From Stephanodiscus triporus (lineage: Eukaryota > Bacillariophyta > Thalassiosirophyceae > Thalassiosirales > Thalassiosiraceae): a stretch of 22,045 nucleotides of DNA. Position numbers and translations under genes: made by a program. The stretch lies in the NCBI GenBank assembly GCA_036939755.1, contig JALLAZ010001188.1, positions 1 through 22,045 of the forward strand, in the 5' to 3' direction. The notes beneath the pieces are model-generated. The model worked only from the letters and a program-made list of their open reading frames with translations, made no database searches and was not told the origin of the DNA. Positions 1-21,920 of the stretch are shown in pieces (within the stretch, counting starts at the first letter, position 1; every line of letters begins with the position of its first letter).

Positions 1-79
1 ACAAAAACTCTACATACCCCAAAACTTTTGTGTTAGTATTTACACGCACACAACAAAAACAAAGTTGCGGCCTCCTTCA

Positions 80-4419: not shown

Positions 4420-4772
4420 TGCCTTCCAGCTACTCCAATAAAAATACCAGGCTATCAACACTTAAACACTATCTGGAGCATCATCAGTCTGCACTAGATT
4501 TCAACAACAGTATCTAAGACAACTACCACAGACTCTACGTCGAACACTCAGAGGTTATTTTTGGCTTGTAAGACTACGCTCCCTTTCAACAAGACCCAAA
4601 GATCCGTTCTTGAATACAGCTTTCCGGAAGTAATAAAATCTACCAGCTACTCTCAGCCTACAAGATCCTGACGCATTCACAAGACTTAGCGAACTCCTCA
4701 AATTGGATTATCATTCGAGCAGAAAGCCGCGAACTTCTGGGCACAAGAAAAGAAAGTCAACGCCATTGTATC

Positions 4773-7142
4773 ATGGTGCACCAACCTCCCCTCGGGGCAG
4801 GGGTGGTGTACTATTACGTTGTCATTGTTCTACTCATTATTTGCATCTCAGCTCATCCTAACACTATCCCTCACCGACGAAACGCACCGATCCATACTAT
4901 CGACGCTCAGCCACGGCCTCAACCTGCCCCGAACATATCACTCGCGTCATCAAGTAGGGCGATGCTTCCGACGATGCAGACACGCTCCGCTGGCCGTACG
5001 GCGACGGCGATATCCCGGGAACTCGAGGAGATTCGTTTACTTAATAAAAAACATCATCAACAGGAACGACAACGCCTAGAAGAAGCAGAGAAACGCAAAA
5101 AAGATGAGGACATCGCCGCCAAAGATCACGCGGAGGCTACGGAGACGGACACGGATGCGCCGGTGGCACGCCCGGATGGCACGGCGGGTACTGATGGCCT
5201 CGATTTCACAGCGGACGTGCATAACATTATGAATGGCCTTGACGAGATGACGGCGGGACTCCAGGAGGAGGATGACGTCGAAGAACGCTCTCCTATGAAG
5301 AAACGGCCGGGATCGAGCAAAGCGCCCTCGAGACGCAGTAAACCAGCAGCACGACAGGTGTCTCCTCAGGACTCCACGACCCCAACCTTGAAAACAGCGC
5401 TCAGACTGCCTCCTACGGCTGAACCCGTCGACCACGCGTACAAGCGTACGATCTTTGAACTAGCGATACTTCTTACAAGCGAGAAAAAATTTGAAGAGTT
5501 TACTCAAGCATTAATGGCGTTTCTAGTCAATGCCCAGATAGTTGACAAGCATTTTGCGATCAATCCCTTGAACCCCACGTCTACGGCCAAGGATATCACA
5601 ATGAAAGGGGATATTTCTCCCAACATGACAAGGCTGGGAGAGCACATTCGGATTTCAGGAAACGGCCCGACAGTCTTCAGCAAACGAAAGAAGTGGGACA
5701 AGGAGGAGGATGGGCGTAACTCGAGAAAGTCAACAAAAAAGGAAGAGTTCCAAGATCCGACGGTCTATTTCTCCATGTTTGTGTCCTCGGCAGTACCTCC
5801 TAAAGACATAATTGACCGTACTACACATGAGTGGGCACGCATGAACGGTGTTAGGCTCCAGATAAAAGAGCTACAGTTTGTCGACAGTGAGACGGTGGTT
5901 AGCCTTTACAAGGTTTCTAAACTCACCCCTAAAGAAGTTATTCTGGAGGAACTCAAGAGGATCCTTCTCATGGCTCAGGAGAAAGCTCGTCAGGATGCGC
6001 TAGAGCCTGAACTGTATGATTTCACGTTGGATCTGGATATTGAAGATACAGCAAAACTCCCAGCAATGACCTTGCGGATTCAGGCAGCGAAATTACGTGG
6101 CGAGGAGGTATCGACCTTCCATAAATTGAATAATAGGGCGCAGTATGCACGGAAAACATGGCATCTAGAGGTGCCCAGTGCATATGCAGCGAAGATGAAG
6201 AGTTTAGTGGAGATTGCGAAGAATTATAAATGTGTGGAAGCATTCTGGGGAGTTCACGCGCATCTGAGCGAGGTCACAGATACCAAGTCAACAGCGAGTG
6301 AAGCAAAGAAACAGGTCGAGATTGCGCAGAAACACACGAATTACGAGGTCTCAATGACAGCTGAAGATCTGGTTGGAGTGATCGACTTGGACTATGCCGC
6401 AACAGTCTATCATCCAGTCACGCGGAAGGAGGTCGGCAAGTACTCGCTCCGGTACGCGTTGATGAATTTTGTTAAGATGAGTGACGGCCGCCCAGCGATA
6501 GCGGAGGCCCATCAAAGCAGTATCTCGAAACCAACACACCTAGTGGTACCAAATACCCCGGAGGCGGAACGGATGATTGGTATGATGAATAAGAACCTGC
6601 CGGCTTACCTGTTCCATACGCTCACTGAATATGACCTTCCTGTTGACTTTGTGGAGGACTTGATCAAGAACTCTTGCGAGGCTACGATGCTGGCCGAAAG
6701 GCATAGATGCAAATGGGATTCGATTACTAAGACTCTGACCACAGCGGAAGATAGTATCCAGGAAGAGAGAGCAAAGGCATTTGAAGGCGCTGCATGGTTT
6801 AGGGATGAATTCGGCTTGCTCGGAAAAAACTCTGCTCGGAATCAAGCACGCTTTGCAGCGCCTGAAACTTTGTTCGATCTTGATGATGTGGGATCTCGCA
6901 AGACTATTCATGATCGTCATAAAAAGGTCCAGATTGAGGAGGGAGCAAATACGGTTTTAGGAACACCGCCTAGAAAGGATACAACGAGGTCGATGGTCGA
7001 CATGACCGGCGACAATGAGGACTCCGCATCCAGCACGAGTTCGGGTTCTGGGGGGACCACGGGCTCGAGTGACAGCCGGTCGCGCTCTCAAGCTTCGTCC
7101 AATGAGGACGGTAGCATCATGAGCGTGACCGGGGGCGGATAG
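4773..7142 (+). CDS. Retrotransposon ORF1 protein
   Basis: This frame of 789 codons precedes the polymerase ORF and by position is the nucleic-acid-binding ORF1 protein of the LINE. From the first ATG (4773) the N terminus is oddly hydrophobic. ATGs at 4962 and 4974 (MQTRSAGRTA) give a more usual start, followed by a charged helix likely to be a coiled coil (about residues 83-115), an acidic stretch, and a basic Pro/Ser-rich segment (KKRPGSSKAPSRRSK). A globular middle follows. Its VYFSMFVSSAVPPKDIID and VVSLYKVSKLTPKEVILEEL pattern looks like alternating strand and helix, possibly RRM-like. The C terminus is a Ser/Gly-rich tail. No CCHC knuckle is present. It ends at TAG 7140-7142, overlapping the open frame of ORF2. 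No database family is recognised; the role is inferred from position. Confidence 0.75.
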   Translation: MVHQPPLGAGVVYYYVVIVLLIICISAHPNTIPHRRNAPIHTIDAQPRPQPAPNISLASSSRAMLPTMQTRSAGRTATAISRELEEIRLLNKKHHQQERQRLEEAEKRKKDEDIAAKDHAEATETDTDAPVARPDGTAGTDGLDFTADVHNIMNGLDEMTAGLQEEDDVEERSPMKKRPGSSKAPSRRSKPAARQVSPQDSTTPTLKTALRLPPTAEPVDHAYKRTIFELAILLTSEKKFEEFTQALMAFLVNAQIVDKHFAINPLNPTSTAKDITMKGDISPNMTRLGEHIRISGNGPTVFSKRKKWDKEEDGRNSRKSTKKEEFQDPTVYFSMFVSSAVPPKDIIDRTTHEWARMNGVRLQIKELQFVDSETVVSLYKVSKLTPKEVILEELKRILLMAQEKARQDALEPELYDFTLDLDIEDTAKLPAMTLRIQAAKLRGEEVSTFHKLNNRAQYARKTWHLEVPSAYAAKMKSLVEIAKNYKCVEAFWGVHAHLSEVTDTKSTASEAKKQVEIAQKHTNYEVSMTAEDLVGVIDLDYAATVYHPVTRKEVGKYSLRYALMNFVKMSDGRPAIAEAHQSSISKPTHLVVPNTPEAERMIGMMNKNLPAYLFHTLTEYDLPVDFVEDLIKNSCEATMLAERHRCKWDSITKTLTTAEDSIQEERAKAFEGAAWFRDEFGLLGKNSARNQARFAAPETLFDLDDVGSRKTIHDRHKKVQIEEGANTVLGTPPRKDTTRSMVDMTGDNEDSASSTSSGSGGTTGSSDSRSRSQASSNEDGSIMSVTGGG

Positions 7143-7155
7143 TCGGCACCAGCTA

Positions 7156-7178
7156 CCCTCCCTTGTCCACGGGGAGGG
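7156..7178 (+). promoter_or_regulatory. Stem-loop at the ORF1/ORF2 junction
   Basis: CCCTCCC (7156-7162) and GGGAGGG (7172-7178) form a perfect 7-bp GC stem with a 9-nt loop, 13 nt after the ORF1 stop. ORF2 lacks a nearby ATG, so the structure may take part in reinitiation or recoding. A role is inferred only. Confidence 0.4.
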
Positions 7179-8288
7179 CACAGCGTTTAGCGCCTAGTGG
7201 AAGGGGAAATGATCACGATGATTTGCGGCGCACAAATCGATCTGGGGGAAAGACCTCGCGGGGGAGACACAACAGAACCCGCGCGAGCAAATTTAGGAAA
7301 CTTAGTGAATTCAAGCGGATAATAGAATTAATCGATGTGGATGGGAATCGACGCCGAGTAGTGAACCAAGGACAGATGAACACAACACGACATGAGACAG
7401 TCCTACAGGTCCTCTCTGCTCGAGCGCAACGGTTTCGTAGAAAAATGGAAATGGTAGACCCAGAGGCGTTGCGACACGACTGGACGGTCGATGAAACAGG
7501 AACAGTCAACACCTCTGTAATTATAAGTGAATGTGAAAAAGAACAACAAGAAATTAGTGAAATGAATAGTATTGCACTTCCCGAGGAGATTCTTCAAGTG
7601 CATGGTTTTGCGCCTCCCAAAAAGGCGGATGGCATAGTTCGACTAATATATGAAAATGCTAATGGATTTCAGAATCGCATAGTCGGTAATGAAAAGGTGG
7701 AGAGAGCGAAGGAGATACATGATGAGCTGGAGGTGGATATAGCAGCATATTGTGAACATCAACTAAATATGAAACACAAAAAGAATTGTAATGGTTTCAA
7801 CCAACTATTTAAAGGGGGGGAAGCAGCGGTGCAATCAGTGGTGGCTCACAACATACATGAAAACATTGGGAAAATTCAGCAAGGTGGAACAAGCTTGCTT
7901 CTTTTTGGACATCTAACGGAGCAATTGGAGTTTGATGAATGTGGAAAAGATAACACTGGACTAGGGCGATGGTCGGTTATGACACTGAAAGGGGTTGGGG
8001 TCCGCACTAGGATTGTATGCGGGTACAATCCCTGTGGGAATGGCAAGCTTAATAGTGGCACGTCCTACCAGCAGCACCGGCGATTTTGGGTCACTCAGAG
8101 GAAGGACTTGACCTGTCCACGGAAGAAATTTCATGATGATCTCGTGGCACAGCTGCAAAAGTGGCGCGAAGATGGAGATCGTCTGGTGGTGTGCCTCGAT
8201 GCTAATGAGGATATCTACAAAAAGTCGCTTGGAAAATCCCTTACGAGGCGTGAGGGATTACGGATGTCAGAGGTTGTCGGAGAAGAAA
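7163..8288 (+). CDS. ORF2, part 1: N-terminal region and AP-type endonuclease
   Basis: The exonuclease-endonuclease-phosphatase fold domain nicks target DNA for target-primed reverse transcription. Visible motifs are YENANGF (7650s), AAYCEHQLN with the catalytic Glu (7750s), VVCGYNPCG (8018-8043), LVVCLDANED with the Asp/Asn pair (about 8184-8210) and, after the frame break, KPIDGIWATSD and GDHRLFVVD with the catalytic His (8394-8420). The frame is open from 7115 with no ATG before 7376, so translation may come from ORF1 by recoding or reinitiation. A basic leader (SGGKTSRGRHNRTRASKFRK) precedes the domain. The frame runs on to a stop at 8324-8326, but sense coding leaves it near 8282-8289, where a GAAGAAAA stretch shifts to the next frame. 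Confidence 0.85.
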
Positions 8289-10991
8289 ATCGGTCCTACC
8301 TTCTTTCGAGGGTCCAAGCCTATTGATGGCATATGGGCAACCTCTGACATTGAGATTGTCCATGCCTGCATAATGCCCGCAGGTTTTGGGGTGGGTGACC
8401 ATCGTTTATTTGTTGTGGACTTTAGAGAGGAAAGCCTGGTGGGCACTGCTCCGTTCCGAATCAAGCGGTTCGAATCCCGCCGTTTGAACACTAAGGTGTC
8501 AAGTGGTGCCACACAAAAGTATATACAGCGAATGGAGGAGCAGCTATCGCGGCACCGCCTCATAGAACGTCTTGGACGACTGTACACCACGTGTTCATCC
8601 CGTAGATCCTTTCAAAAGGGACTGAACAAGCTGGATAAGCAGAGTAGGGACATAATGCTTAATGCGGAGAAAAGGTGTCGAAAAATTAAATCAGGACGCA
8701 TTCCCTTCTCCCCGGAAGCTGCGCTATGGATCCGGAGAACACAGGTATACCGGTCGCTTCTTCGGTACCATAGGGGACTCATTCGTAATCGGGGCAACCT
8801 GAAACGCACAGCTCGACGGTGTGGAATTCGTAATTGCCTCTCGATTTCTATCGACGACATACTACAACGCTTGAAAGTATGTATCAGGCAGTGCGACTAT
8901 TTTCGAAAGCATGGAAAACAATTTCGGAGGAAGCATCTATATGAATGCCTGAGGACTGCGAAGGAAAAAGGGGATGATAAAAAGGAAAAGGAGATACTGG
9001 CTATCATCCAGCGCGAAAAGGACCGTGGCTTCTGGCGTCGAATTAACTATGTTATGGGGAAGCAACGTGGAGGATCAGTACGGAGGGTACTTACAGAAGA
9101 CGGGGAAGAAGAAGGAACGCTCATGGAGCATCAGACAGAAGAATCGGTCACGGAGGCTATCTTCAACAATATACACCGGAAACGCTTCTTCCTTGCTGAG
9201 GCGGCGCCAATCTGCTCCGGAGCACTCCGGGGTCAGTTTGGATACAACGCCACAACAAGAACAGCCAGGGCCATCCTAAATGGTACCTATGAATTCCCAC
9301 CCGATTTTGATCAGGCGACTAAGGAGATTCTTTTAGAATGTGCAAAGATAAGAGTCATGATTCCAATTGATTCCCTGAATATAATAATCACCAAAGAGGA
9401 ATGGAGGAGGCAGTGGAAGGGTCGAAGGGAGTCTACGTCATCGTCGGAATCCGGTCTGCATTTTGGGCATTATATTGCAGGAATAGACTCGGATCATATT
9501 TCCCACTTCCATGCTTTAAAGGCATCTCTTATTATTCGAAGAGGGGTCGTTCTAGATAGATGGGCACGGGGTCTGTCGGTTATGTTGGAAAAAATCTTCG
9601 GATGTGCGTTGGTAACTAAGCTTCGATCAATCCTCTTAATGGAAGCGGACTTCAACGCTACCAATAAGATTATTTACGGGCAACGAATGCTTCAACAAGC
9701 ACGAAAGTACAAGCTCGTACCGGAAGAAATCTACAGCGAGAAGAACCGCTTGGCAGATGACGGGACTCTTGCGAAAGTTATCTTTTATGACATCGTACGC
9801 CAGACGCGACGGCCAGCAGGGATAGGGGCGGTGGATGCTGATAATTGCTATGACAGAATAGCCCACCCAATCGCGTCGATGGTTTTCCAGTCCCTGGGTG
9901 TTCCAAAGGAAGCAGCAGCATCGATGTTATCCACTATCCAGGATATGAAATTTTTCCTTCGAACCGGATTTGGTGACTCAACAGCATATGCGGGCTCGGC
10001 AGATGGCAAGAAAACGCAAGGACTATGTCAAGGCAATGGCGCAGCCCCAGCGGGTTGGGGTGTTACCAGCATTGCAATGCTTCGGGCGCACAAAAGGAAG
10101 GGATACGGTGCTCACTTCCGCTGCCCGATCACAGAAAAGGAACATCACTCAGCGGGCTCGGTATTTGTCGACGACACTGATCTGGAGCAATTCAACATGA
10201 ATAAACTACAAACAGTAGAGGAAGTGCATGCCGAATTTCAGGAGAGCGTTCTAAATTGGGGAAAACTTTTGCTTGCGACCGGAGGGGCCCTGAAGCCCAT
10301 AAAATGCTTCTACCATTTGATATCATTCATTTGGCGGCAAGACGGTACATGGCGGTATGCAGACAATGTTGGAAGAGACGATCTTAAAATCAGGGTCCCC
10401 CTGGAGGACGGATCACTGGCAGATATAGATCATTTGCCGGTAACAACTCCCACCAAAACTCTCGGACAGATGACCTGCCCCACAGGCGGGAGCGACGGGG
10501 CGGTAGCACAGATGCGAGAGAAAGCTCGCGGATGGGTGGAGAAGGCCAGAGCCAGCAAGCTCAATAAGCGTATCCTTGTCTTTCTCCTGGACAAGCAATT
10601 CTGGCCGGGGGTCTCATTCGGAATCAGCAGCGTATGTGCCCCGTTCAGGGAGTTAGAGGAATGTCTAATGAAGATATATTACGATATGCTGCCGTTGTGT
10701 GGCATAAGGCGCTCGGTACGAAGGGAACTCCGACAAATGGACAGAGGTTTTTACGGAGTCGGTCTACCACACCCGGGGGTGGAATGCCTAGTCGCACAAT
10801 TGAACAAGCTACTCACACACTATGGGAGCAGCTCGAGTTTGGGTATTCAGATGCAGGTGTCAATGGAGATGCTGGTGATAGAAGGGGGAATATCTTTACA
10901 AATTCTATCAGAGTCCTTCGCCACCTACGGGAAGCGGGTAACGCACAGCTGGCTGAGATCAGTCTGGGAAAAGATTGATAAGTTTGGGTAA
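8283..10991 (+). CDS. ORF2, part 2: end of endonuclease and reverse transcriptase
   Basis: The frame resumes with KIGPTFFRGSKPIDGIWATS and the endonuclease His motif GDHRL. A long basic linker follows, then the reverse transcriptase. RT motifs in order are SGLHFGHYIAGID (9450-9490), RPAGIGAVDADNCYDRI with motif A Asp (about 9814-9860), QGLCQGNGAAPAGWG as motif B (10018-10062), and SVFVDDTDLEQF as motif C with the catalytic Asp pair (about 10155-10190). YVDD is replaced by FVDD-TD. The downstream TTPTKTLGQMTCPTGG is typical of the thumb-side region of these elements. The frame stops at TAA 10989-10991 but remains open in phase beyond it, so the stop interrupts rather than ends ORF2. It makes the cDNA at the nicked target. 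Confidence 0.9.
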   Translation, partial: KKIGPTFFRGSKPIDGIWATSDIEIVHACIMPAGFGVGDHRLFVVDFREESLVGTAPFRIKRFESRRLNTKVSSGATQKYIQRMEEQLSRHRLIERLGRLYTTCSSRRSFQKGLNKLDKQSRDIMLNAEKRCRKIKSGRIPFSPEAALWIRRTQVYRSLLRYHRGLIRNRGNLKRTARRCGIRNCLSISIDDILQRLKVCIRQCDYFRKHGKQFRRKHLYECLRTAKEKGDDKKEKEILAIIQREKDRGFWRRINYVMGKQRGGSVRRVLTEDGEEEGTLMEHQTEESVTEAIFNNIHRKRFFLAEAAPICSGALRGQFGYNATTRTARAILNGTYEFPPDFDQATKEILLECAKIRVMIPIDSLNIIITKEEWRRQWKGRRESTSSSESGLHFGHYIAGIDSDHISHFHALKASLIIRRGVVLDRWARGLSVMLEKIFGCALVTKLRSILLMEADFNATNKIIYGQRMLQQARKYKLVPEEIYSEKNRLADDGTLAKVIFYDIVRQTRRPAGIGAVDADNCYDRIAHPIASMVFQSLGVPKEAAASMLSTIQDMKFFLRTGFGDSTAYAGSADGKKTQGLCQGNGAAPAGWGVTSIAMLRAHKRKGYGAHFRCPITEKEHHSAGSVFVDDTDLEQFNMNKLQTVEEVHAEFQESVLNWGKLLLATGGALKPIKCFYHLISFIWRQDGTWRYADNVGRDDLKIRVPLEDGSLADIDHLPVTTPTKTLGQMTCPTGGSDGAVAQMREKARGWVEKARASKLNKRILVFLLDKQFWPGVSFGISSVCAPFRELEECLMKIYYDMLPLCGIRRSVRRELRQMDRGFYGVGLPHPGVECLVAQLNKLLTHYGSSSSLGIQMQVSMEMLVIEGGISLQILSESFATYGKRVTHSWLRSVWEKIDKFG

Positions 10992-13145
10992 AGGGTGGAA
11001 ATCCGAGAGCTTCCACTCCGGTCCCCAAGAGAGAATGATGGGTGGATCATGCAGGCCTTTGCTAGTCAGGGGATCACCGAAGATGAGCTGCTCCGGTTGA
11101 ATCGGGTCCGGTGCCATCAACAAGTCATATTCATATCAGATGTCTTTGATGCTAGCGGGAGAGCAGTGGACAGAAAATATCTCCGACCTCGGGCTCTGGA
11201 AGAAACATGGTCTACCCTGATCTTTCCTCAAGAGCGTCCACCACGCAGGGATTTTAAACTGTGGCAGCAGGCAGTTTTACTACTGGCGCCAAGAGGACGC
11301 CCAGACAGGAGACTAGGACGGCTGCTAACCAAGGGGCATAAGATATGGCCTTGGCGATATGACATCGACAACGGTGAGCTATATCACATGAAGGGTGCGG
11401 TTATGGACATTTACACACCAACAGCAGGGTGTACACGCCGAACAAACAAATGGCGATGCACGGTACTAGATGCCCACAGAAGAGAATCGGGTATGATATG
11501 CTCGGTCAGGGAGGAGGGGAACGGAACGATATCTATTATATGCTTCACGGACCCTCCGGCAGCAGTCACTCCCCCGTCGGACTTCTGGGAAGTTCTGGAT
11601 AGATGGCAACGGCGATGGATGTGGGAGAATCTCACTTGGGTTGGGGATGACAACTGGCTGGCAGCAGCGATTGCGGATGGTACGTGTATTGCGGTCACGG
11701 ATGGGTCCTACATGAAAGACCTTTATCCGAACGTCCAATCAGCTGCGGTCGTCCTAGAGTGTACCAGAGGTAGGGGGCGCATGTGGTGCTCGTTTACTGA
11801 AACCTCTGCAGTTGCGTGCAGCTATCGAGGGGAGCTTCTCGGTCTCATGGCAATTCACCTCATCCTCTTGGCAATAAATGAGGTGAATCCTAGGCTGGAG
11901 GGCTCCGTGCATATTTTCTCGGACTGCCTTGGAGCATTGGATAAGGTGAAGAACCTACCTCCTTCCCGCATACCATCGGGATTGGCTCATTCGGACGTGC
12001 TCAAGAATATCTTGGTGAACTGCAGTGACCTCTCCTTTGAGCGTGTCTACTCTCACGTGAAGGCGCATCAGGATGATGTCATAGCTTATCAGGATCTCAC
12101 GCGCCCAGCTCAACTGAACGTAAATATGGACTCATACGCTAAACAAGCTCTTTGGGATCTTCAGGCAACACAGCAGCCCACTCAGCAGGCCTTTCCCTTG
12201 GAACCAGTGTGTGTTTTTGCGGGAACTACAAAAATAACGGCAGATTCTGGACAGGCATCGAGGTACTGGGCACACCGGAGTTTGGCGCGAACGGTGTTTT
12301 CTCAATTGGATATTCTCTACCACACCTCCTTTGATAAAGTCGATTGGGAGATGGTGTATCAAACGCTTCATGAGGTCCCGCGCCTTTTCCAACAATGGGC
12401 TAGCAAGCAGGTAATGGGCATTGCAGGAACTATGGAATGGGATAAGTCGGAGGTGCGGATGTGCCCCAGTTGTTTTCAGGAGAGGGACACCTGCGCACAT
12501 GTGCTGTATTGTGATAACGCGGGCAGGGTAGAGACCTTTCGACACACCATAGATCTAGTGGAGGGATGGATGGAAGAGTCAGACACTGACCCTACGTTGC
12601 AAGACTGTATTGCGGAGTTCGCCCTCGGCCGGGGAGGACGCACGATGGTGGAGATTTGCACAGGTCTGGATGAAAGGTATCAACAAATGGCGGCGGACCA
12701 GGATGCGATAGGCTGGAGGAGATTTATGGAAGGTATGGTGTGTACGAAAATAAAACAAATTCAAACCTTATATCATCTTCGGATAGGAACAAGGATGACG
12801 CCAGATCGATGGGTCAAAGGACTAATAGTGAAGTTGCTGGAGGTAACCCACGGTCAGTGGCTTTATCGTAATGTGCAACTCCATGATTCAGTGGCAGGCA
12901 CGCAAGCTACTCTTCGGAAAGAGGAAATCCGGCAGGAAATAGAGGACCAGATGGAGATGGGATCCGAAGGCTTGCTTGAGGAAGATCGATGGATGATGGA
13001 GGTGAATTTGGGGGACCCAGAGACTCGCTCAGGGGAGCAGGAGGAATATTGGCTACTAGCCATACGTGCGGCAAGGGAGGCAGCGACATTGACGAGGCAA
13101 TTGACGCGACACGCAAGGGCGGATCTGATGGGAGAAGGGCACTAA
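10992..13145 (+). CDS. ORF2, part 3: RNase H domain and zinc finger
   Basis: This is in phase with the RT part and separated from it only by the TAA at 10989-10991. It has no ATG at its start, so it is the C-terminal portion of the same polyprotein. After a linker (RENDGWIMQAF, LNRVRCHQQV) comes an RNase H fold: AVTDGSYM with the first Asp (about 11692-11715), SYRGELLGL with the Glu (11821-11850), IFSDCLGAL with the Asp (11914-11940), YSHVKAHQDD with the His (12049-12078) and NMDSYAK with the last Asp (12124-12144). A zinc finger follows, CPSC then HVLYC (12461-12511), as in other LINEs with a downstream RNase H. The end is acidic and charged. All RNase H catalytic residues appear intact, so decay of this copy is slight. 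Confidence 0.88.
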   Translation, partial: RVEIRELPLRSPRENDGWIMQAFASQGITEDELLRLNRVRCHQQVIFISDVFDASGRAVDRKYLRPRALEETWSTLIFPQERPPRRDFKLWQQAVLLLAPRGRPDRRLGRLLTKGHKIWPWRYDIDNGELYHMKGAVMDIYTPTAGCTRRTNKWRCTVLDAHRRESGMICSVREEGNGTISIICFTDPPAAVTPPSDFWEVLDRWQRRWMWENLTWVGDDNWLAAAIADGTCIAVTDGSYMKDLYPNVQSAAVVLECTRGRGRMWCSFTETSAVACSYRGELLGLMAIHLILLAINEVNPRLEGSVHIFSDCLGALDKVKNLPPSRIPSGLAHSDVLKNILVNCSDLSFERVYSHVKAHQDDVIAYQDLTRPAQLNVNMDSYAKQALWDLQATQQPTQQAFPLEPVCVFAGTTKITADSGQASRYWAHRSLARTVFSQLDILYHTSFDKVDWEMVYQTLHEVPRLFQQWASKQVMGIAGTMEWDKSEVRMCPSCFQERDTCAHVLYCDNAGRVETFRHTIDLVEGWMEESDTDPTLQDCIAEFALGRGGRTMVEICTGLDERYQQMAADQDAIGWRRFMEGMVCTKIKQIQTLYHLRIGTRMTPDRWVKGLIVKLLEVTHGQWLYRNVQLHDSVAGTQATLRKEEIRQEIEDQMEMGSEGLLEEDRWMMEVNLGDPETRSGEQEEYWLLAIRAAREAATLTRQLTRHARADLMGEGH

Positions 13146-13350: not shown

Positions 13351-13561
13351 TAAGTTGTATTGTATATTGTATTGGTATCTAACCACAAGCGCAGGCATGA
13401 GCGAGTGCTCAGAACTCAGAACACAAACATAACATCCCTTCCCGCCACCGGACGACGCTGCCGACTCGTCCTCTCCTCCTCCACGCCCGTCGCTGAAATA
13501 AAGGACGTTGCCGCCGTAGCCACTGAGTGTGATGATAAAGTAGCTCTTTGGCTGCTTTAGC
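13351..13561 (+). promoter_or_regulatory. Junction and upstream region of the cyclo-ligase gene
   Basis: This stretch holds the likely retroelement 3' boundary (a TTGTAT-rich run at 13353-13376) and then the promoter and 5' UTR of the folate gene. No TATA box is obvious. A non-ATG open frame up to 13560 is not considered a gene. Confidence 0.3.
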
Positions 13562-14749
13562 ATGCGCAGTTCGTCCTCGGCAACCACTCTTTTCATCGCC
13601 AACATCGCCTCCTTGATTTCATCCGTCGCCGCTAAGACCGCGAACCAGCAGCACCAGCCCCTCAGCGTCGTTTCTACCGCGACGTTCCTGCATCGTCGCG
13701 ATCATCATCATCGTCATCGTAATCTTCGTCGCCATCATCATCGCATCCCTCGCGATTGTCGCAATCGGCAACACCGAGCCGGGATCGTTCGTCCGTCGGC
13801 CATCGAATCATCGTCGTCGAGAATCGGTGGCGGCATCGGCATCGGCCGAATGAGTTCCGACACAGCGTCGTCATCAGCGGCGGACGGAGACGACGCGACC
13901 GCGCTCCTGCGTCAACGGAAACAATCCCTGCGGAATCTGATACGCTCTCGGATGAAATCGGCGTACCCGCGCGACGAGGCCGGCGGGCAGTCGTCGCGGC
14001 TGCTGTCGTCCGAGTCCGACCTCGTCTTCTCCCGCCTCTTCTCCCTCCCCCAGTACTCGCTCGCCAGGTCCGTGGGATTCTTCCTGTCGATGCCGCACGG
14101 GGAGATACGCACGGATCGCGCGATACGGAGGATGATCGCATCGCCGCGCGGCGGCGGCGGGGGGGACGGCGACACCGGCACCGAGAGGAAGGTCCTGTAC
14201 GTCCCGAGGGTGGGATTGGACTTCGAGGGTCGCGACATGGACATGGTCCGATGCGACGACGTCGGGACCGCGACTGCCCCGACGACGGACGACGACGGCA
14301 GCGAGAAGATGTTCTATCACGACTGGCCTCGTAACAGGTGGGGAATACCGGAGCCCCCGCCTTCGACGACGACGTCCGCGACCGCCGAGGTGGCCATGCC
14401 AGGGGACATCGACATCCTCGTCGTGCCGGGACTAGCGTTCGACGTCGACGGCAGTCGATTGGGGCAGGGGAAGGGATATTACGATCGGTTCATCGCCAGG
14501 ATGAGGGCGGACGACCGCCGCGCGGGCGGCGAGGGAGACGACGCCCGCGTCACGTGGAAGAGGCCGCTGCTCGTGGGGGTGTGCCTTGAGGAGCAATTCC
14601 TGGACGAGGCGCCACACGGCGTCGATTTGGGCCACCGTGGCGGCGGATACCCTCGTGGTGGAATTATTCCCGTTTCCGATCACGATTACGTCATGGACAT
14701 CGTGCTCACCCCATCCAGGACTTTAATCTTGCGCAACGTCCAATCCTGA
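13562..14749 (+). CDS. MTHFS: 5-formyltetrahydrofolate cyclo-ligase (5,10-methenyl-THF synthetase)
   Basis: The enzyme converts 5-formyl-THF to 5,10-methenyl-THF using ATP, returning stored folate to one-carbon metabolism. Signatures are a basic N-terminal helix (RQRKQSLRNLIRSRMKS, about residues 117-133), SVGFFLSMPHGEIRTDRAI, WGIPEPPP near residue 260, DILVVPGLAFD followed by GQGKGYYDRF (about residues 290-312, the nucleotide and substrate loop), and PVSDHDYVMDIVLTPS near the end. The frame is intronless and runs from ATG 13562. M97 (13850) is the start that would give a usual core enzyme of about 300 aa. The extra 96 residues begin with a Ser-rich, weakly hydrophobic segment and a His/Arg-rich stretch, which suggests an organelle presequence but could be untranslated. 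Gly/Asp-rich inserts lengthen the core loops. The coding region is GC-rich, unlike its flanks. Confidence 0.93.
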   Translation: MRSSSSATTLFIANIASLISSVAAKTANQQHQPLSVVSTATFLHRRDHHHRHRNLRRHHHRIPRDCRNRQHRAGIVRPSAIESSSSRIGGGIGIGRMSSDTASSSAADGDDATALLRQRKQSLRNLIRSRMKSAYPRDEAGGQSSRLLSSESDLVFSRLFSLPQYSLARSVGFFLSMPHGEIRTDRAIRRMIASPRGGGGGDGDTGTERKVLYVPRVGLDFEGRDMDMVRCDDVGTATAPTTDDDGSEKMFYHDWPRNRWGIPEPPPSTTTSATAEVAMPGDIDILVVPGLAFDVDGSRLGQGKGYYDRFIARMRADDRRAGGEGDDARVTWKRPLLVGVCLEEQFLDEAPHGVDLGHRGGGYPRGGIIPVSDHDYVMDIVLTPSRTLILRNVQS

Positions 14750-15178
14750 TGGTTGGACAATCAATGATACCGGCGAGGACCCTGACGGGCAAGCGCATAG
14801 TGAGAGCATGGGAATGATGTAGGAGGATAATAAATTGAAGACAGTATTACGTCATCATGTTAGAAATACACCGAGAGTGTCAGTTTCAATGAAAAAATCA
14901 TACAAGTGTGATGCATTCGCAAATATCACCCTTTATTCATAGAGTTCAGGCCTCGGGCTATGATTCATCAGCGATTGCCCGTCGCTCGAAACCTGGCATT
15001 TTTACCTGCCAAACTCACCTCCCAAATCATTTTTCACATTGCAGAGGGAAATCGCTCCAAAAAATCAAAAGCAATGCAATCACAATTCACTATGAATCTT
15101 TTACTACATCTAATTCACTATGAATCTTTTACTACATCTCTTCAGGTTTCTTATCATGACAAGGAGGTCACACTCCAC
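14750..15178. other. Convergent 3' intergenic region
   Basis: This spacer lies between the stop of the folate gene and that of the homeobox gene. It holds a possible plus-strand AATAAA (14829-14834), about 80 bp after the folate stop. A minus-strand AATAAA (TTTATT near 14932) lies about 245 bp beyond the homeobox stop. It also holds a perfect tandem 28-bp duplication. No gene is seen. Confidence 0.4.
15084..15139. repeat. Perfect tandem duplication, 2 x 28 bp
   Basis: The unit at 15084-15111 (beginning aattcactatgaatc and ending actacatct) is repeated without change at 15112-15139. It lies in the probable 3' UTR of the homeobox gene. Confidence 0.95.
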
Positions 15179-16184
15179 TTACACTGCAACGACATTATCC
15201 GCTGATGCTTTTTGATGCTTGCTGTCCAGCAGCTCGTCGGGTTGGACCTCTTCTGCAGCAACGAGGCTGCCATAAAAATTCTGCGAAAATTCATCAAGTG
15301 GCAGTGGAGCCACAGGATCAGCTGTAGGTGCAGACTCGGCAAACAAGCCTTGGTCAACAAAATCTGCACTGTATGAAATTCCAGAATCATTTATTGTATC
15401 AGAAGCTGGGGTATAAACAGCGGCAGTGGCAAGCAAAGCTGGAGAAAGAGAATCAGACTTGCCCAAACCATACTGCGCCCTCAGCTTGTCCATCTTGGGC
15501 TTCCAGTACCGCTTTCGATTATTGGAAAACCAGCATGTCAACTGCTTCTTGTCAATGCCAGTTGCAGCTATGATCTCGGCCTTCTCTTCCTCAGTTGGGT
15601 ATGGATTTTGGAAATGCTCAGGGCTCATCATCCATGATTTAAGATAATCAATGACATCGGGGGCCAGTGTGTTACCCATTGCAGCTTCTACAACATCGCA
15701 CCTTGCGGGCACAAATGAAAAAGAAGGAAATAATATGTAGCGATAAGGTTTCGAGAATTCTGGTGACGGGAACAATCTTCGATTTCTTTCTCACGCACTT
15801 TCCCAACTTCTCCATCTCGGGTTTCCAGTACCTCTTTCTGTTATTGGAAAACCAGCATGTCAGCTGTTTGCTGGAGATGCCGGTATCCTTGATTATCTTG
15901 TCCTTGTCTTCCTCTTCGTAACAAATATTTACAACATAGTCACAAAGAGGGATGAATGGAGTATTGGTGGGGGGAAACGCGGAAAGAGGTAGAGGTTGAG
16001 GAGGTAAATGATTTTGGGATACCGACCCCATTCAAAACTGCAATGAAAGTCGATGTTGCATTCACTCACCACTGGGGTACGGGTGATTGACGTGTTCTGG
16101 CGAAAACATCCATGATCGCAGATATTCGATTGTGGGAGTCGGAAGCTTATCGGCGCTGCCGATCTTCCGTTTCTTCGACATCAT
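15179..16184 (-). CDS. Tandem double TALE homeodomain transcription factor
   Basis: This is a nuclear DNA-binding protein of about 250 aa in three exons (16184-16070, 15913-15799, 15701-15179). The introns of 156 and 97 bp have GT-AG ends and the phases agree. The exon lengths sum to 753 nt, an intact frame with stop. After a KKRK basic tract, homeodomain 1 (about residues 17-76) reads IEYLRSWMFSPEH, PYPSEEDK, then KQLTCWFSNNRKRYWKP. Homeodomain 2 (about residues 92-151) reads IDYLKSWMMSPEHFQ, PYPTEEEK and the same recognition-helix segment. The PYP loop marks the three-residue TALE insertion. Only about 20 residues separate the domains. The C-terminal 100 residues are acidic and Ser/Ala-rich, a plausible activation region. 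The gene diverges from the M16 protease gene across 304 bp. The start could also be the second ATG at 16181. Targets are unknown. Confidence 0.85.
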
Positions 16185-16488
16185 TGAGGTCGGCGGGAAA
16201 AATCGATTGGACTGATCGATGATGCGATGATCGTGATCGGTGATGAGTGGGTTGGACTCAACCCATGGTGGTGGTCACAACTCTCTCTACCGGTTGATTT
16301 TAGATACATGAGATGTCACTCTACTCCTCTTTCCGAAGTTCCTGGAGTTCCCGCGCACAAAATATACTAGGAATTCCCGCCAAAACAAGCATAAAATTAC
16401 TTACTCTACTTTTATTATTTACATACTCTACCATTATGTAACTCTTGATAACATTCCTAAAAAAACAAAAAACGCAACGAACAATGCC
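16185..16488. promoter_or_regulatory. Divergent promoter region, homeobox / M16 protease
   Basis: The 304 bp between two divergent start codons must hold both promoters and 5' UTRs. It contains a run of overlapping GATCG/GATG motifs (16202-16246) and a 7-bp inverted repeat, TGGGTTG-GACT-CAACCCA (16248-16265). No clear TATA box is seen. Confidence 0.5.
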
Positions 16489-16507
16489 ATGCCATCGAAG
16501 AATCTGA
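16484..16507 (+). promoter_or_regulatory. Overlapping upstream ORF at the M16 start
   Basis: An ATG at 16484 opens a 7-codon frame ending at TGA 16505-16507. It overlaps the chosen M16 start (16489) in another frame. It could lower initiation at 16489 and favour the in-frame ATG at 16549. Confidence 0.4.
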
Positions 16508-19500
16508 ACACGGGCATAATATTCGTGGCAGTTATCACTTCGCGGCGTATGACAGCCGGGTTAGGGTCCCCTCCCGCCGTTGGATCGCGGCCGCGGCGGA
16601 TGATGACGACGACGACGACATTCGCGAGCCCGTCGTCCCGCTCGCACTCGAGGACGTCCACCTCCTACAACAACACAGCCAACGACAACGATTACGGTTG
16701 CGACGTTTGCAATATCGCTGCCTTTGACGAACTGAATTCTTCCATACCTACCCATGTCAGTCGTCGAAAGTTCATCCGACTCTCGACGGCTACAACCATC
16801 GCAGGAAGTTCGAGCTTTTCTACTTATCCGTCGACTCCAGCTCAGGCTATAGATGACGCAGATTCACTATTCGCCCCAGACAAGAAAAAAATCATCGCTT
16901 TCGGAGGACCACTGCCTCCCTTCTCGACCACGCGAACTTATAGAAATATAGTTCTGTCAAATGGACTGAAGGTGGTGCTCGTGAAAGATTTATTGGTACA
17001 ACGATCTTCAGTTGCTTTGAGTATTGACGGTGCTGGTCAGTTTTCGGAGCCTGAGGATGTTCCGGGGCTCGCTCATTTAATGGAGCACATCGTGCTTTCT
17101 TCCACCCGCTTTAGTGGGAAAAATATACTTGAAAGGAAGGCTAGATCATTATGGAACAACGATCAAGGTAAACGAAACAATGTCATCAGCAGTGTTGAAG
17201 AGGCGTTTGAGGACTGGCTTTCGGAGAATGATGGCGATTCAAACGCATTTACTGCTCCTGGTTTTGTGTGCTTTCATTTCACTGGTCCGCATGAGGTGAG
17301 TTGATATCCTTTTCTCTTCAAAGATCATTTGCGTTGAACAATCAATCATCACCGTTTTCAAAATCACAAGATTTTACCAGAAGGATTGGAAAGGTTCTCT
17401 CGACTCTTTTCTTTAGACGAAGTTGAGAACACAATTGCTAACGGCGTTATCCCGCGCGAAATTGGCCGTGTTGCGGACGAGCTCGATCGCACGAGTGATG
17501 CATCGAGGGCCTTTTACTTCTTGAAAAAAAGCATCAACCCCGATCATCCTTTTGCTAGGTTCTCAGCAGGGTCAAAGACGACGCTGCAAACCATTCCTGC
17601 GGAGAAAGGAATCAATGTAGCGTCCAGACTACTGAGTTTCTTCCGAGATCACTATCTCGCCTCAAAGGCTACTCTGGTTGTTGTTGGACGAGACGACCTT
17701 AGTTTTTTGGACCGATGGATCTCTCCTTTTTCGAACGCTATGTCGCAGAAAGTAAGCCTTGGCGGAAGATCTTTCCATAAGCCTCCATTCCCCGATCCTA
17801 TGATTAACCGTGGTATGACAAATAGACAAGCTATCATTCTCAGATCTAAAGATGACGTTCAAATGGATGAAAATTTACAGACATTATGCATGGAATGGCC
17901 ACTAGCTTTGGTTTATGATGGGACCCGGCAAGCGCCTCGGCAAACCACTATCACTGCTCATGCTGTAGGGTTCGTGTTGACGCAAATTATTTCTCGCCGT
18001 GGGCCTGGAAGTTTGCGCTTCTTCCTAGAAAAATATGGGTGGGCGCCAAATGTAGGATCGAAGGGTTTGCCAAGGATATCGTTTCCTGTTGATGTGGACG
18101 GATTTCAGATACTGAGAATGGAAATTGGCTTGACTCTAGACGGTTTCTCAAATCGATCAGCAGTAGTTAGCGCAGTGTTTGAGAGTATACGCAAGGTAAT
18201 TGAAACGCCTCTACAGCTTGATCTCATCAAGCAATATCTCGTGACAGGACTAGTCCATGGATATCTGTTTGCGCCACGCCCGCCCGATGCAATAGCTCTA
18301 GCTGTGGATTCAATTCGTTTTGGAATCGGTGGTACTAGTGGTATTGCAAGCAATGAGTTCAATTGGTACTTAATGCCTTCCCCGGAGGATGAAGAGTCAG
18401 TAACTAGAATGAGACAAGTTGTTACGGACACTCTCAAAATTATGTCGGATGAAAGTTGCCCATTGGTTAGTTTTAGAGCGTCACCGCTGGCAGTATTCGA
18501 ATTCAGTGGAGGTATTGTTGATCAGACTATTTCCACCCCGCCTGTTTTTTCTCCATGGAAAAAGGAGCCTATAACTGGAGCGCGCTATTTGGTCGAGACT
18601 AGAGCTAATGGGGCGCTTAGCTACTTCAAGTCGCTCTCTTGGTTCGCTGCAACTTTTGATGGTGAAGAACTATCGCCTCCGTATTTGAATCCATTGATCC
18701 CAACGAACATTCGATCGCCACGACTAATTATTGAACGTCAAGTAGCATGGAGAGGGAGCCGCTACTTTTACCTTGATGACGCCTCGGATGAATTGGCACG
18801 CACTAGTGGGAGGAATCTAAAGTTGACAAACGGAGGATCATGGCGTGAATTACAGACAAGTGGGCTTTCCGATGGAGGGTCGAATTGGAAGTTGTGGCAA
18901 ATTCCTCCTGGCAAGATAGGTTTCATTGGGCTCCCAGTTCCTGTTCGGCCTCCGGAACCATCTGTTGAATGTGCTTTTGTTGTGCAGCTACTAAGTTCCC
19001 TGCCAGCGACTTTCACAAGCAGCCAGCTAGCATTTGCCAATCTCTGGCTATCATCATTTGATGATGAGGTGCTGGATCTAGCGGAACTCGGCGCAATCGT
19101 GGGTATAGCATATGAGACGAGCTTTAACACAGCTGGTCTTCGCATTTGTTTCCGTGGCGTTAGTCAGACCCTTCCAAGTTATGTTCGTCGTTTCTGCCGC
19201 CGACTTGTCCAACACCATGTTAAATTATTTGATGGCTCCACCAAAATATCGGAGTCATTACACCAACACGCCATTTCCAAACAAATCATTGACACTGTAT
19301 GGCAGGTAACAGAAAAAGAAGTTGCAGAACAAGGACTCTCCTTCTTAAGGTGTACAAGTGGTGGCATTTTGGTAGCGCAAGGAGACGTTTTGCCGGATGA
19401 GTCTTTGACGCTTCTTGCAGACCTTCAGTATGTGTTTCGTGATTACGGCCTTGCAGATAACTTTTCTGTTAGACCTGAACTAAGGGACTTGTTATACAGG

Positions 19501-19593
19501 CCTTTTTGGAAGCCAAGGGACTCGTCACCGTGTCTATTACCAGGCATTTCTCTGATATCAGATGCATGTGGAAGGATTCCGCGAGGAGGATGA
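16489..19593 (+). CDS. M16 (insulinase/pitrilysin-type) metalloprotease with thylakoid Tat-type signal
   Basis: This is a zinc peptidase of about 1,009 aa in two exons (16489-17295, 17371-19593). The 75-bp intron starts GTGAGT, ends ACAAG and has phase 0. The inverted zinc motif HLMEH is at residues 196-200, the GDSNAFT active-site-region motif follows, and E299/E306 (REIGRVADE) supply the third ligand, as in insulin-degrading enzyme. HPFARFSAGSKTTL is also a family match. About 30 extra residues lie between HLMEH and the Glu. N-terminal targeting looks multipart: a short hydrophobic stretch, a Ser/Thr/Arg-rich stretch, then SRRKFIRL (residues 91-98), a hydrophobic core and a cleavage-type AQA (118-120), as in Tat-dependent thylakoid lumen proteins. 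The C-terminal half is the usual inactive M16 repeat. The end may be altered: from a T5 run (19503-19507) another frame stays open to 19694 with protein-like content. Confidence 0.88.
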
Positions 19594-19830: not shown

Positions 19831-21920
19831 TTATGTTTTCTTGTCAGGATCATCCTTACCGTGGATTGAATAGTGACTCAGGGCTTTGATCAAATCCTTC
19901 TTGGTAAAATCCTCCTCATCCCCGTCATCATATTCGACATGCCAGAATGCAGGATTTTCAGAATTGTCGTACTCCACAATTGTGCCGAAGAAAGATGATC
20001 CATCAAAGTCTTTGGAAATCCTTTTTCCGACGAAGCTACGAGGGTCTGAGTTCACTAATGCTGCAAAGTCGTCTCCTAGTTTGGCCTTCTTTGCTGCAGG
20101 CTTCTTCGAAGCAGTACGAGTCTCGTTCGCCCCGTGCTTCGCAGATTTCATCGGGAAGCGAGGGATTTCTACAGCTGTCTCGTCCGGTAGAATTGACGCT
20201 AGGGTCTTAACTTTATCATCAGAGGACGCATTTAGTGCATCCATTTTCTTATGAGAGATGCCAGTGCGCTTCCCTGCCGCAGCTTTCACTGATTTCTTCT
20301 CCCCATACTCCGCATACATTTTGAACATGTCTAAATGAGGAAACGCGTTGTGCGTTCAGCTGAATGTGAAGAATTTACAAACCATCATGAGCGACGAAAG
20401 GAAGGTACTCACCCAATAATTCGTCCATTCCGACATCCTCGCTGTCGCCATCATCATATTGAATTCGAAAGTCGGGATCTTCGCCCTCAAATTCAATGAC
20501 CCTTGCCACTATGCCTCTAAAAATGTTATCGCCATCGTCCGCCTCAACTTCAAAATGTTTCGCCACACGTTTACCAATGTACTCCTCATGGGGAAGTCCC
20601 TTGCGCTTGCGTAAACTATTCTGCGACAAAAGGGCGCACGCGACACCATAGTGCATCAGGTGCTTCGATGATTCGACGTCATAGCGCGGTTTCGACGATT
20701 CGTTGTTGGACTTTCCGCCATCGCTGTTGCTGTGTTCGATGAGCCCCCCGTGGTGGGGCTGTAGCAATTCCATCAATATATCGCCGTCTCCGCCGGTGCA
20801 CAGTACTTTCCTCTTGGAATTGACCTTCGCCCGCCCGGCGGGGATAGTTTTTTTGAACGCCTTCTCGAGCCAATGTTCGATCACGTTCTGTCCCTTCAAG
20901 GCGAATTCCTGAAAGCTGTCTACCATCATCGCCTCCCGAGTGTTCCTAGCAAAGGTGGGGAGTGGTTTCCCATTATCCTGCGCCTCCTTCACCCGGGAGA
21001 GCACCTCCTCCATGCTAATTTCCGGCAGCGCGTGAGTATCCTTGCTCAGCGAACGAAACTTACTCTGAATGCCTGGACCGATGCCCCCGCCCAAGATTTT
21101 GCCATCGCTGTCCGTGGCCGAGTACGTCGTCGCAGTGCCCCCGTCGAACACCAACGCCGGATGGCCGTACATATGGACCGCGCCGGTGAGCGTCGCGAGG
21201 CGATCCGTCCCCATGTTGTCGTACCTTCCATCCTCCTTCTTGAAGAAATCGTCCCCCTTCATCACGAAGAAGCGACTCGGTACCGTCTCCCATATCCTGG
21301 CGAGTAGTTCCTCCTGGACGCGGTTGGTGCTGACGACGTAGACGGATATTTGCGGCACGTCTCGCGATTGCGATTGCTCGTTGGCGTTCTCGGCCGATGC
21401 GTCCCTGGCCTTGCCGAATATGTAGTCGTGCGGCTGGTCGGGGAGATTCCTGCTAAGGATCGCGATCGGGTCCTCGAACTTTGTTTCGTCTTCTGTCAAA
21501 TGGGGGGTTCTGGCGTGAAGTGGAATATCATTTTGAAAAATTGTGGGGGGGATGCGAGATGCGAGTAAAGGCAAGGCAAGAAAAATATGCAGCAACCGAG
21601 GAAAAGACCGAATGAGTACGGAAAATGCCGTTGGACGAGCGGCGAAGCAGTAGGTAGTAACTCTCACCTCCAAAACGTATGAGGCTCGAAATTGTGCTCG
21701 ACTCCCAAATGAGTAGCCCAGTGCAAGTGTGAATTTCCGCAAGAGCTGAAAGTTTGAAATGAAGAAGGAATGAGTGGCGTGAGCCTCGAAACTAACTACA
21801 GATGCATTATGAACTACGATAACGAAACGAAAGTAATGCATCTTACATTGTGATGATTAATTTTTCTCCATCCAGTGGCACGGCTTCGGGCCATATCGTC
21901 TCAGACGACGGAGCCGACAT
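19831..21920 (-). CDS. CoaX-like type III pantothenate kinase fused to two Tudor-like domains
   Basis: The four exons are 21920-21847, 21745-21668, 21509-20413 and 20330-19831. The introns (101, 158 and 82 bp) have GT-AG ends and agreeing phases, giving 582 aa. Residues about 22-345 form a CoaX fold (phosphorylates pantothenate, first step of CoA synthesis): ISCGNSHLHWA at residue 25, FWRTPHL at 49-55, GTDR at 151-154, FDGGTATTYS from 172, GKILGGGIGPG, and TGGD further on. The N-terminal motif has Ser where most CoaX have the catalytic Asp, and its HLHWA and W.TPHL pattern resembles cyanobacterial CoaX. Two Tudor-like domains of PTM/DIR17 type follow: EEYIGKRVAKHF to YDDGDSED (about 359-425) and SFVGKRISKDF to YDDGDEED (about 515-572), joined by a basic linker. 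The fusion does not depend on a dubious splice: the first Tudor-like domain is in the same uninterrupted exon as the kinase. Confidence 0.88.

What the first reader, a model, noticed from the sequence alone, without database searches (positions are those of the whole stretch)
19831..21920. A coenzyme A pathway kinase fused to two Tudor-like domains
CoaX is normally a stand-alone enzyme of about 250-300 aa. Here it carries two C-terminal copies of a Tudor-like module of the kind found in plant chromatin proteins (GKRVAK.F to YDDGD.ED). The first copy shares an uninterrupted exon with the kinase. The fusion suggests a metabolic enzyme tethered to chromatin, or a kinase fold reused as a regulator that senses pantothenate or ATP.
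Basis: partly seen in the sequence, partly recalled or inferred. Interest (0 to 1): 0.75.

Follow-up and report, generated by a model that had tools for sequence, protein, structure and literature searches.

The report
Diatom CoaX kinase with Tudor readers
Diatoms carry a bacterial-type vitamin B5 kinase, the first enzyme of coenzyme A synthesis, joined to two domains that look like readers of methylated histones, which suggests that a step of metabolism may be anchored to chromatin.

Summary
On the minus strand at 19831-21920 lies a four-exon gene for 582 aa: a type III pantothenate kinase (CoaX) followed by two PTM/DIR17-type Tudor domains, all three above Pfam cut-off. Tudor 1 shares exon 3 with the kinase.

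It is not a one-off: 57 of 95 database relatives carry both Pfam domains. Named sources are centric and pennate diatoms. MMETSP transcripts of other diatoms hold kinase and Tudors in one frame; none was seen from this species. The kinase keeps its catalytic motifs and resembles cyanobacterial CoaX, sharing loss of the motif-1 Asp. In 27 presumed cyanobacterial genomes no other pantothenate kinase passed cut-off, so that loss need not mean inactivity.

Tudor 2 is closest, weakly, to the Arabidopsis H3K4me1 reader RDM15. Its reader motif is in 74 of 74 proteins with a detected Tudor 2; Tudor 1 lacks it in 27 of those 74. The genome also has a type II kinase.

Best reading: active CoaX tethered to chromatin. 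Activity, binding and nuclear location are inferred. The listings seen showed no paper on the fusion.

The parts
21847..21920 (-). exon 1, start codon and N-terminal leader (residues 1-24)
   Evidence: WP-A-P leader shared with other diatoms
21668..21745 (-). exon 2, first CoaX motif GNSHLHW (21718-21738)
   Evidence: weak separate homology hit
20413..21509 (-). exon 3, most of the kinase plus Tudor 1
21200..21211 (-). GxDR motif (residues 151-154); Asp153 in 163 of 163 eukaryotic rows with a letter there
21125..21145 (-). DGGTATT motif (residues 173-179)
21071..21091 (-). GGGIGPG motif (residues 191-197)
20417..20581 (-). Tudor 1 (residues 361-415), Pfam PF21743
19831..20330 (-). exon 4, basic linker and Tudor 2, stop codon
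20080..20106 (-). basic cluster KKPAAKKAK (residues 492-500), possible nuclear localisation signal
   Evidence: K[KR]x[KR] in 67 of 74 inter-Tudor linkers against a shuffled mean of 43; the NLS role is inferred
19888..20034 (-). Tudor 2 (residues 516-564), Pfam PF21743, YDDGDEE reader-type motif

Best explanation
A widespread diatom fusion enzyme: a cyanobacterial-type CoaX that most likely still phosphorylates pantothenate, held on chromatin by its C-terminal Tudor domains. Tudor 2 is the conserved methyl-lysine reader, and an H3K4me1-like mark is the best guess. The enzyme would start coenzyme A synthesis beside chromatin, in parallel with the type II kinase, and so couple local CoA/acetyl-CoA supply to the histone-methylation state. 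Shown: gene structure, domain identities, conservation, conserved catalytic and reader-type residues, cyanobacterial affinity. Inferred: catalysis, methyl-lysine binding, nuclear location, and the link to CoA or histone acetylation.
Confidence: 0.5

Rival explanations
1. Reused kinase fold: the CoaX domain binds pantothenate and/or ATP but is no longer a significant enzyme. It acts as a metabolite sensor or scaffold that changes what the Tudor domains do.
For: CoaX has non-enzymatic precedents: a catalytically inactive type III kinase in M. tuberculosis is reported (PMC8366970, passage), and a Dop-CoaX complex is in the PDB (9cku, title only). The motif-1 Asp is missing. Another kinase is present.
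Against: The remaining catalytic motifs are almost invariant across the eukaryotic rows. The missing Asp is also missing in presumed cyanobacteria in which no other pantothenate kinase passed cut-off.
Confidence: 0.22
2. Active kinase whose Tudor domains bind something other than chromatin (methylated cytosolic protein, RNA-protein complex, or self-assembly); the protein is mainly cytosolic.
Against: Best match by structure and by profile is a histone reader, with the acidic residues for lower-methyl lysine kept, a basic linker, and chromatin-type partner domains in two of three scanned sister Tudor genes, one of them below cut-off.
Confidence: 0.22
3. Artefact: two adjacent genes or an assembly join misread as one.
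For: The splice model was made by hand on an assembly of 1324 contigs; no RNA from this species was seen.
Against: Tudor 1 lies in the same open frame as the kinase, and proteins named as MMETSP transcripts or peptides of other diatoms hold kinase plus two Tudors in one frame, e.g. P0001, P0017, P0046.
Confidence: 0.01

Closest known systems
Type III pantothenate kinase CoaX (PF03309, TIGR00671), cyanobacterial subfamily PRK13331
   Same: Fold, GxDR, DGGTATT, GGGIGPG and TGGD motifs, GNS.LHW first motif without the leading Asp
   Different: The bacterial proteins seen here are about 250-300 aa without Tudor domains; the diatom kinase is diverged (79.9 bits against the PRK13331 cut-off of 251) and the diatom rows sit on a long stem of their own (2.09 changes per column)
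PTM/DIR17-like Tudor domain (PF21743)
   Same: Both copies over Pfam cut-off; VGKRVAK.F ... YDDGD.ED
   Different: Found here behind a cofactor-biosynthesis kinase
Arabidopsis RDM15 Tudor domain (H3K4me1 reader, PDB 7de9)
   Same: Tyr623 and the Tyr641-Asp-Asp-Gly-Asp-x-Glu647 pattern have counterparts; closest natural structure to Tudor 2
   Different: Phe is the probable replacement of Trp616; binding not shown; RDM15 is an RNA-directed DNA methylation factor, not an enzyme of CoA synthesis
Mammalian nuclear pantothenate kinases PanK1alpha and PanK2
   Same: A pantothenate kinase placed in the nucleus (PMC3496714, abstract)
   Different: Type II family (recalled); directed by their unique N-termini rather than histone-reader domains

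Membership tests
Type III pantothenate kinase (CoaX) | Profile match over curated cut-off | tested here: met
   PF03309 68.9 (24.7); TIGR00671 76.5 (58.2)
Type III pantothenate kinase (CoaX) | CoaX fold | tested here: met
Type III pantothenate kinase (CoaX) | Catalytic GxDR, DxGT(A)T, GGxIxPG motifs | tested here: met
   Present in the window; columns checked hold the commonest letter in 154 of 164 or better, except the Pro of GGxIxPG (141 of 163)
Type III pantothenate kinase (CoaX) | Leading Asp of the first phosphate-binding motif DxGN (textbook form, recalled) | tested here: not met
   Ser26 here; Asp in 0 of 72 eukaryotic and 0 of 32 cyanobacterial rows, in 76 of 80 other bacteria. It does not mark the cyanobacterial branch either, so it is not taken as defining; filing rests on the curated PF03309 and TIGR00671 cut-offs
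Type III pantothenate kinase (CoaX) | Pantothenate kinase activity, dimer, lack of CoA feedback inhibition (recalled) | not testable with these tools
   needs protein
NCBIfam equivalog PRK13331 (cyanobacterial CoaX) | Score over equivalog cut-off of 251 bits | tested here: not met
   79.9 bits; it is the best-scoring NCBIfam model but the protein is not filed there
PTM/DIR17-like Tudor (PF21743) | Profile match over curated cut-off, each copy | tested here: met
   28.9 and 45.3 against 27.2
Tudor fold | Small bent beta-barrel resembling solved Tudors | tested here: inconclusive
Methyl-lysine reader of RDM15 type | Cage aromatics and two Asp contacting methyl-ammonium | tested here: inconclusive
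   Equivalents of Tyr623, Tyr641, Asp643, Asp645 and Glu647 present; the Trp616 position not resolved and probably Phe
Methyl-lysine reader of RDM15 type | Binding to methylated histone peptide | not testable with these tools
   needs ITC or peptide arrays

The most novel reading that the evidence does not exclude
Diatoms have hard-wired a cofactor-making enzyme of cyanobacterial type to a histone-mark reader, so that CoA synthesis (or pantothenate sensing) is switched or placed by the methylation state of chromatin, a direct physical link from vitamin B5 to the epigenome.
Probability: 0.3. Interest if true: 0.9.

Novelty: new variant of a known kind. Interest (0 to 1): 0.7.

Why it matters
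Nuclear CoA and acetyl-CoA supply is thought to shape histone acetylation, but metabolic enzymes are usually brought to chromatin by loose interactions (general knowledge). Here the connection appears to be written into one polypeptide and kept in centric and pennate diatoms. It can be tested with a few point mutations (kinase Asp153; Tudor 2 Tyr550 and Asp552). It also offers a case of a cyanobacterial-type enzyme refitted with eukaryotic chromatin modules.

Tried and rejected
Artefact reading: rejected (transcripts of relatives; one open frame for kinase and Tudor 1). A stand-alone CoaX elsewhere in the genome: none found. A sole-kinase reading: rejected, because a type II kinase matches on another contig. 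Chance similarity of the basic linker: tested by 200 shuffles, observed 67 of 74, shuffled mean 43, maximum 51. The first genome-contig scan matched 141 stretches but no relative; the second, with another alignment, gave 80 loci. A DFP-type PPC synthetase was not found in the genome, while CoaE was; not pursued, since introns can split genes and the family may be diverged. Sequence search of Tudor 2 alone against PDB found nothing at E <= 10; the profile gave 7de9 at E 0.0049 and LBR at 0.1. One search (literature on the active site) gave nothing usable. The trees show three monophyletic groups and are unrooted; 'sister to cyanobacteria' holds only if the root lies among the other bacteria, and the program warned that long branches meet. 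The four rows between RDM15 and SMN are TraI barrels, taken as a shared arrangement.

Full report
GENE. The window is a whole contig of a 21.65 Mb genome in 1324 contigs. On the minus strand, exons 21847-21920, 21668-21745, 20413-21509 and 19831-20330 give 582 aa and a stop. The exon 2 frame carries GNSHLHWA and exon 3 opens with RTPHL; both match relatives without gaps. A separate relative, P0101, hit exon 2 at 21667-21744, weakly (E 0.007).

DISTRIBUTION. The full protein found 95 proteins at E <= 1e-3, of 7996 candidates scored; 57 carry both Pfam domains. With the window, 46 of 96 show two Tudors, 46 one and 4 none by my own profile; many single-Tudor rows are short frames that may end at the intron behind Tudor 1. 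Named sources include Detonula confervacea, Thalassiosira punctigera, T. profunda, T. exigua, Cyclotella cryptica, C. meneghiniana, Skeletonema marinoi, Attheya and a Rhizosolenia whose taxid is now Sundstroemia setigera. Searches with the kinase profile and with P0101 (unnamed source, pennate by its nearest relatives) added Fragilariopsis cylindrus (partial, no Tudor seen), Pseudo-nitzschia heimii, Nitzschia inconspicua and Entomoneis paludosa. Many rows are unnamed metagenome proteins that I call diatom only by their likeness to the named ones. Over all three searches 196 of 197 proteins match the kinase profile, bacteria included: 56 with two Tudors, 84 with one, 56 with none. Proteins named as MMETSP transcripts or peptides hold kinase and two Tudors in one frame (P0001, P0004, P0006, P0017, P0046, P0049, P0084, P0139). 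No transcript of this window's own species was seen. The own genome holds one CoaX and a type II kinase.

ORIGIN OF THE KINASE. PRK13331 is the best NCBIfam model for the window and for the three other eukaryotic kinases tested. It passes its cut-off in 70 of 194 genomes drawn from the phylum of a Gastranaerophilales locus, and in one of 14 control genomes; which one is not told, but Synechococcus elongatus is among the seven that ring. I take the 30 best-scoring of these genomes as cyanobacteria; they are unnamed. In a tree of 13 chosen diatom rows, these 30, and 47 other bacterial rows (every second of the 80 loci plus seven proteins), each group is one side of a branch (100/99, 99/90, 99/95). 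The same holds after six rows, among them the longest branches, were dropped. The trees are unrooted, so kinship with cyanobacteria assumes a root among the other bacteria. Asp stands at the head of motif 1 in 0 of 72 eukaryotic rows and 0 of 32 cyanobacterial rows (the 30 plus two named ones), and in 76 of 80 other rows. The only two bacterial hits of the P0101 search that bear an organism's name are cyanobacteria. A plastid-derived origin is possible but untested.

IS IT AN ENZYME? Asp153 (163 of 163), Asp173 (165 of 165), Thr179 (164 of 164) and Gly197 (164 of 164) are invariant where a letter is present, out of 174 eukaryotic rows. The missing motif-1 Asp need not mean loss of activity: of the 30 presumed cyanobacterial genomes, 27 were checked (three whose match held a stop were left out). 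None had a type II match, and none a type I kinase over cut-off; all 27 had weak type I matches of at most 35 bits against 235. The control genomes did not ring for type II, but the window's own genome did. A review passage also gives a type III enzyme for Synechocystis (PMC7133116, passages). Against: M. tuberculosis CoaX is reported inactive (PMC8366970, passage).

IS IT A READER? RDM15 holds the methyl group with Trp616, Tyr623 and Tyr641 and the ammonium protons with Asp643 and Asp645; Glu647 contacts H3R2 (PMC8184781, passages). The profile alignment and numbering check place Tyr623, Tyr641, Asp643, Asp645 and Glu647 on Phe530, Tyr550, Asp552, Asp554 and Glu556 of Tudor 2. Over 135 Tudor domains (first and second copies) these columns hold F/Y 131, Y/F/W 135, D 132, D 131, E 132. 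The pattern [YFW]xDxDxE is in 74 of 74 second Tudors, the window's included, and in 47 of the same 74 first Tudors. Second Tudors were picked by a profile that favours the motif, but 69 of 72 proteins that run at least 200 aa past the kinase have one, so the bias is small. Of the 27 proteins without the motif in Tudor 1, 22 came first from the P0101 search; of the six named, five are pennates and one is Attheya. So Tudor 2 is the constrained copy. In this genome five other genes pass the Tudor cut-off. Three were scanned: one also has an MBD (over cut-off), one a PHD_2 match (below cut-off) and an RGS domain, one nothing else; two were not scanned. Diatom DNMT5b enzymes with Tudor domains are described (PMC9998398, passages).

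LOCATION. The N-terminal leader is short and shows no hydrophobic stretch to the eye. The inter-Tudor linker has K[KR]x[KR] in 67 of 74 proteins against a shuffled mean of 43 and maximum of 51. This suits a nuclear signal but does not show it. Mammalian PanK1alpha and human PanK2 are found in the nucleus (PMC3496714, abstract).

MECHANISM. Most likely the kinase works and the Tudors hold it at methylated chromatin, so that 4'-phosphopantothenate, and through the rest of the pathway CoA, is made there. From general knowledge, type III kinases resist CoA feedback, which would set this enzyme apart from the type II kinase. The steps from catalysis onward are inferred.

LITERATURE. Searches for type III pantothenate kinase with diatom (0 papers), CoaX with Tudor (4), pantothenate kinase with Phaeodactylum (2) or diatom (10), type III kinase with eukaryote (16), pantothenate kinase with Tudor domain (10, of which 8 listed), and two of CoA biosynthesis/diatom/Tudor (198, of which 10 listed) gave listings in which no title or abstract start described this fusion. 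Databases name some members 'Type III pantothenate kinase'. The library lacks most subscription papers.

Noticed in passing
window 4614-13142 (+): Four long neighbouring frames with no Pfam match; by eye they look like a LINE-type retroelement with reverse-transcriptase-like and RNase H-like stretches.
   Followed up: partly
window 15179-15790 and 15672-16031 (-): Two neighbouring Homeobox_KN matches, perhaps a tandem duplication or two exons.
   Followed up: no
window 16312-19593 (+): M16-type peptidase in two frames (the second match is below its Pfam cut-off), convergent with the CoaX-Tudor gene.
   Followed up: no
window 3-2411 (+): SF3a60/Prp9-like splicing factor carrying an SDE2_2C match.
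   Followed up: no
window 13544-14746 (+): 5-formyltetrahydrofolate cyclo-ligase-like frame.
   Followed up: no
window 15084-15139: Perfect two-copy 28-base tandem repeat.
   Followed up: no
L002:640-2958 (+): Protein with MBD and PTM/DIR17 Tudor, and by eye a cytosine-methyltransferase-like C-terminus.
   Followed up: partly
L005:1-2235 (+): Protein with an RGS domain, a Tudor domain and a sub-threshold PHD match, an odd mix.
   Followed up: no
L012 (minus strand): Type II pantothenate kinase frame with, by eye, an N-terminal hydrophobic segment and a large insert, possibly membrane-anchored.
   Followed up: no
own genome G000: No DFP-type match for phosphopantothenoylcysteine synthetase, although CoaE is present; it may be a diverged or split gene.
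   Followed up: no
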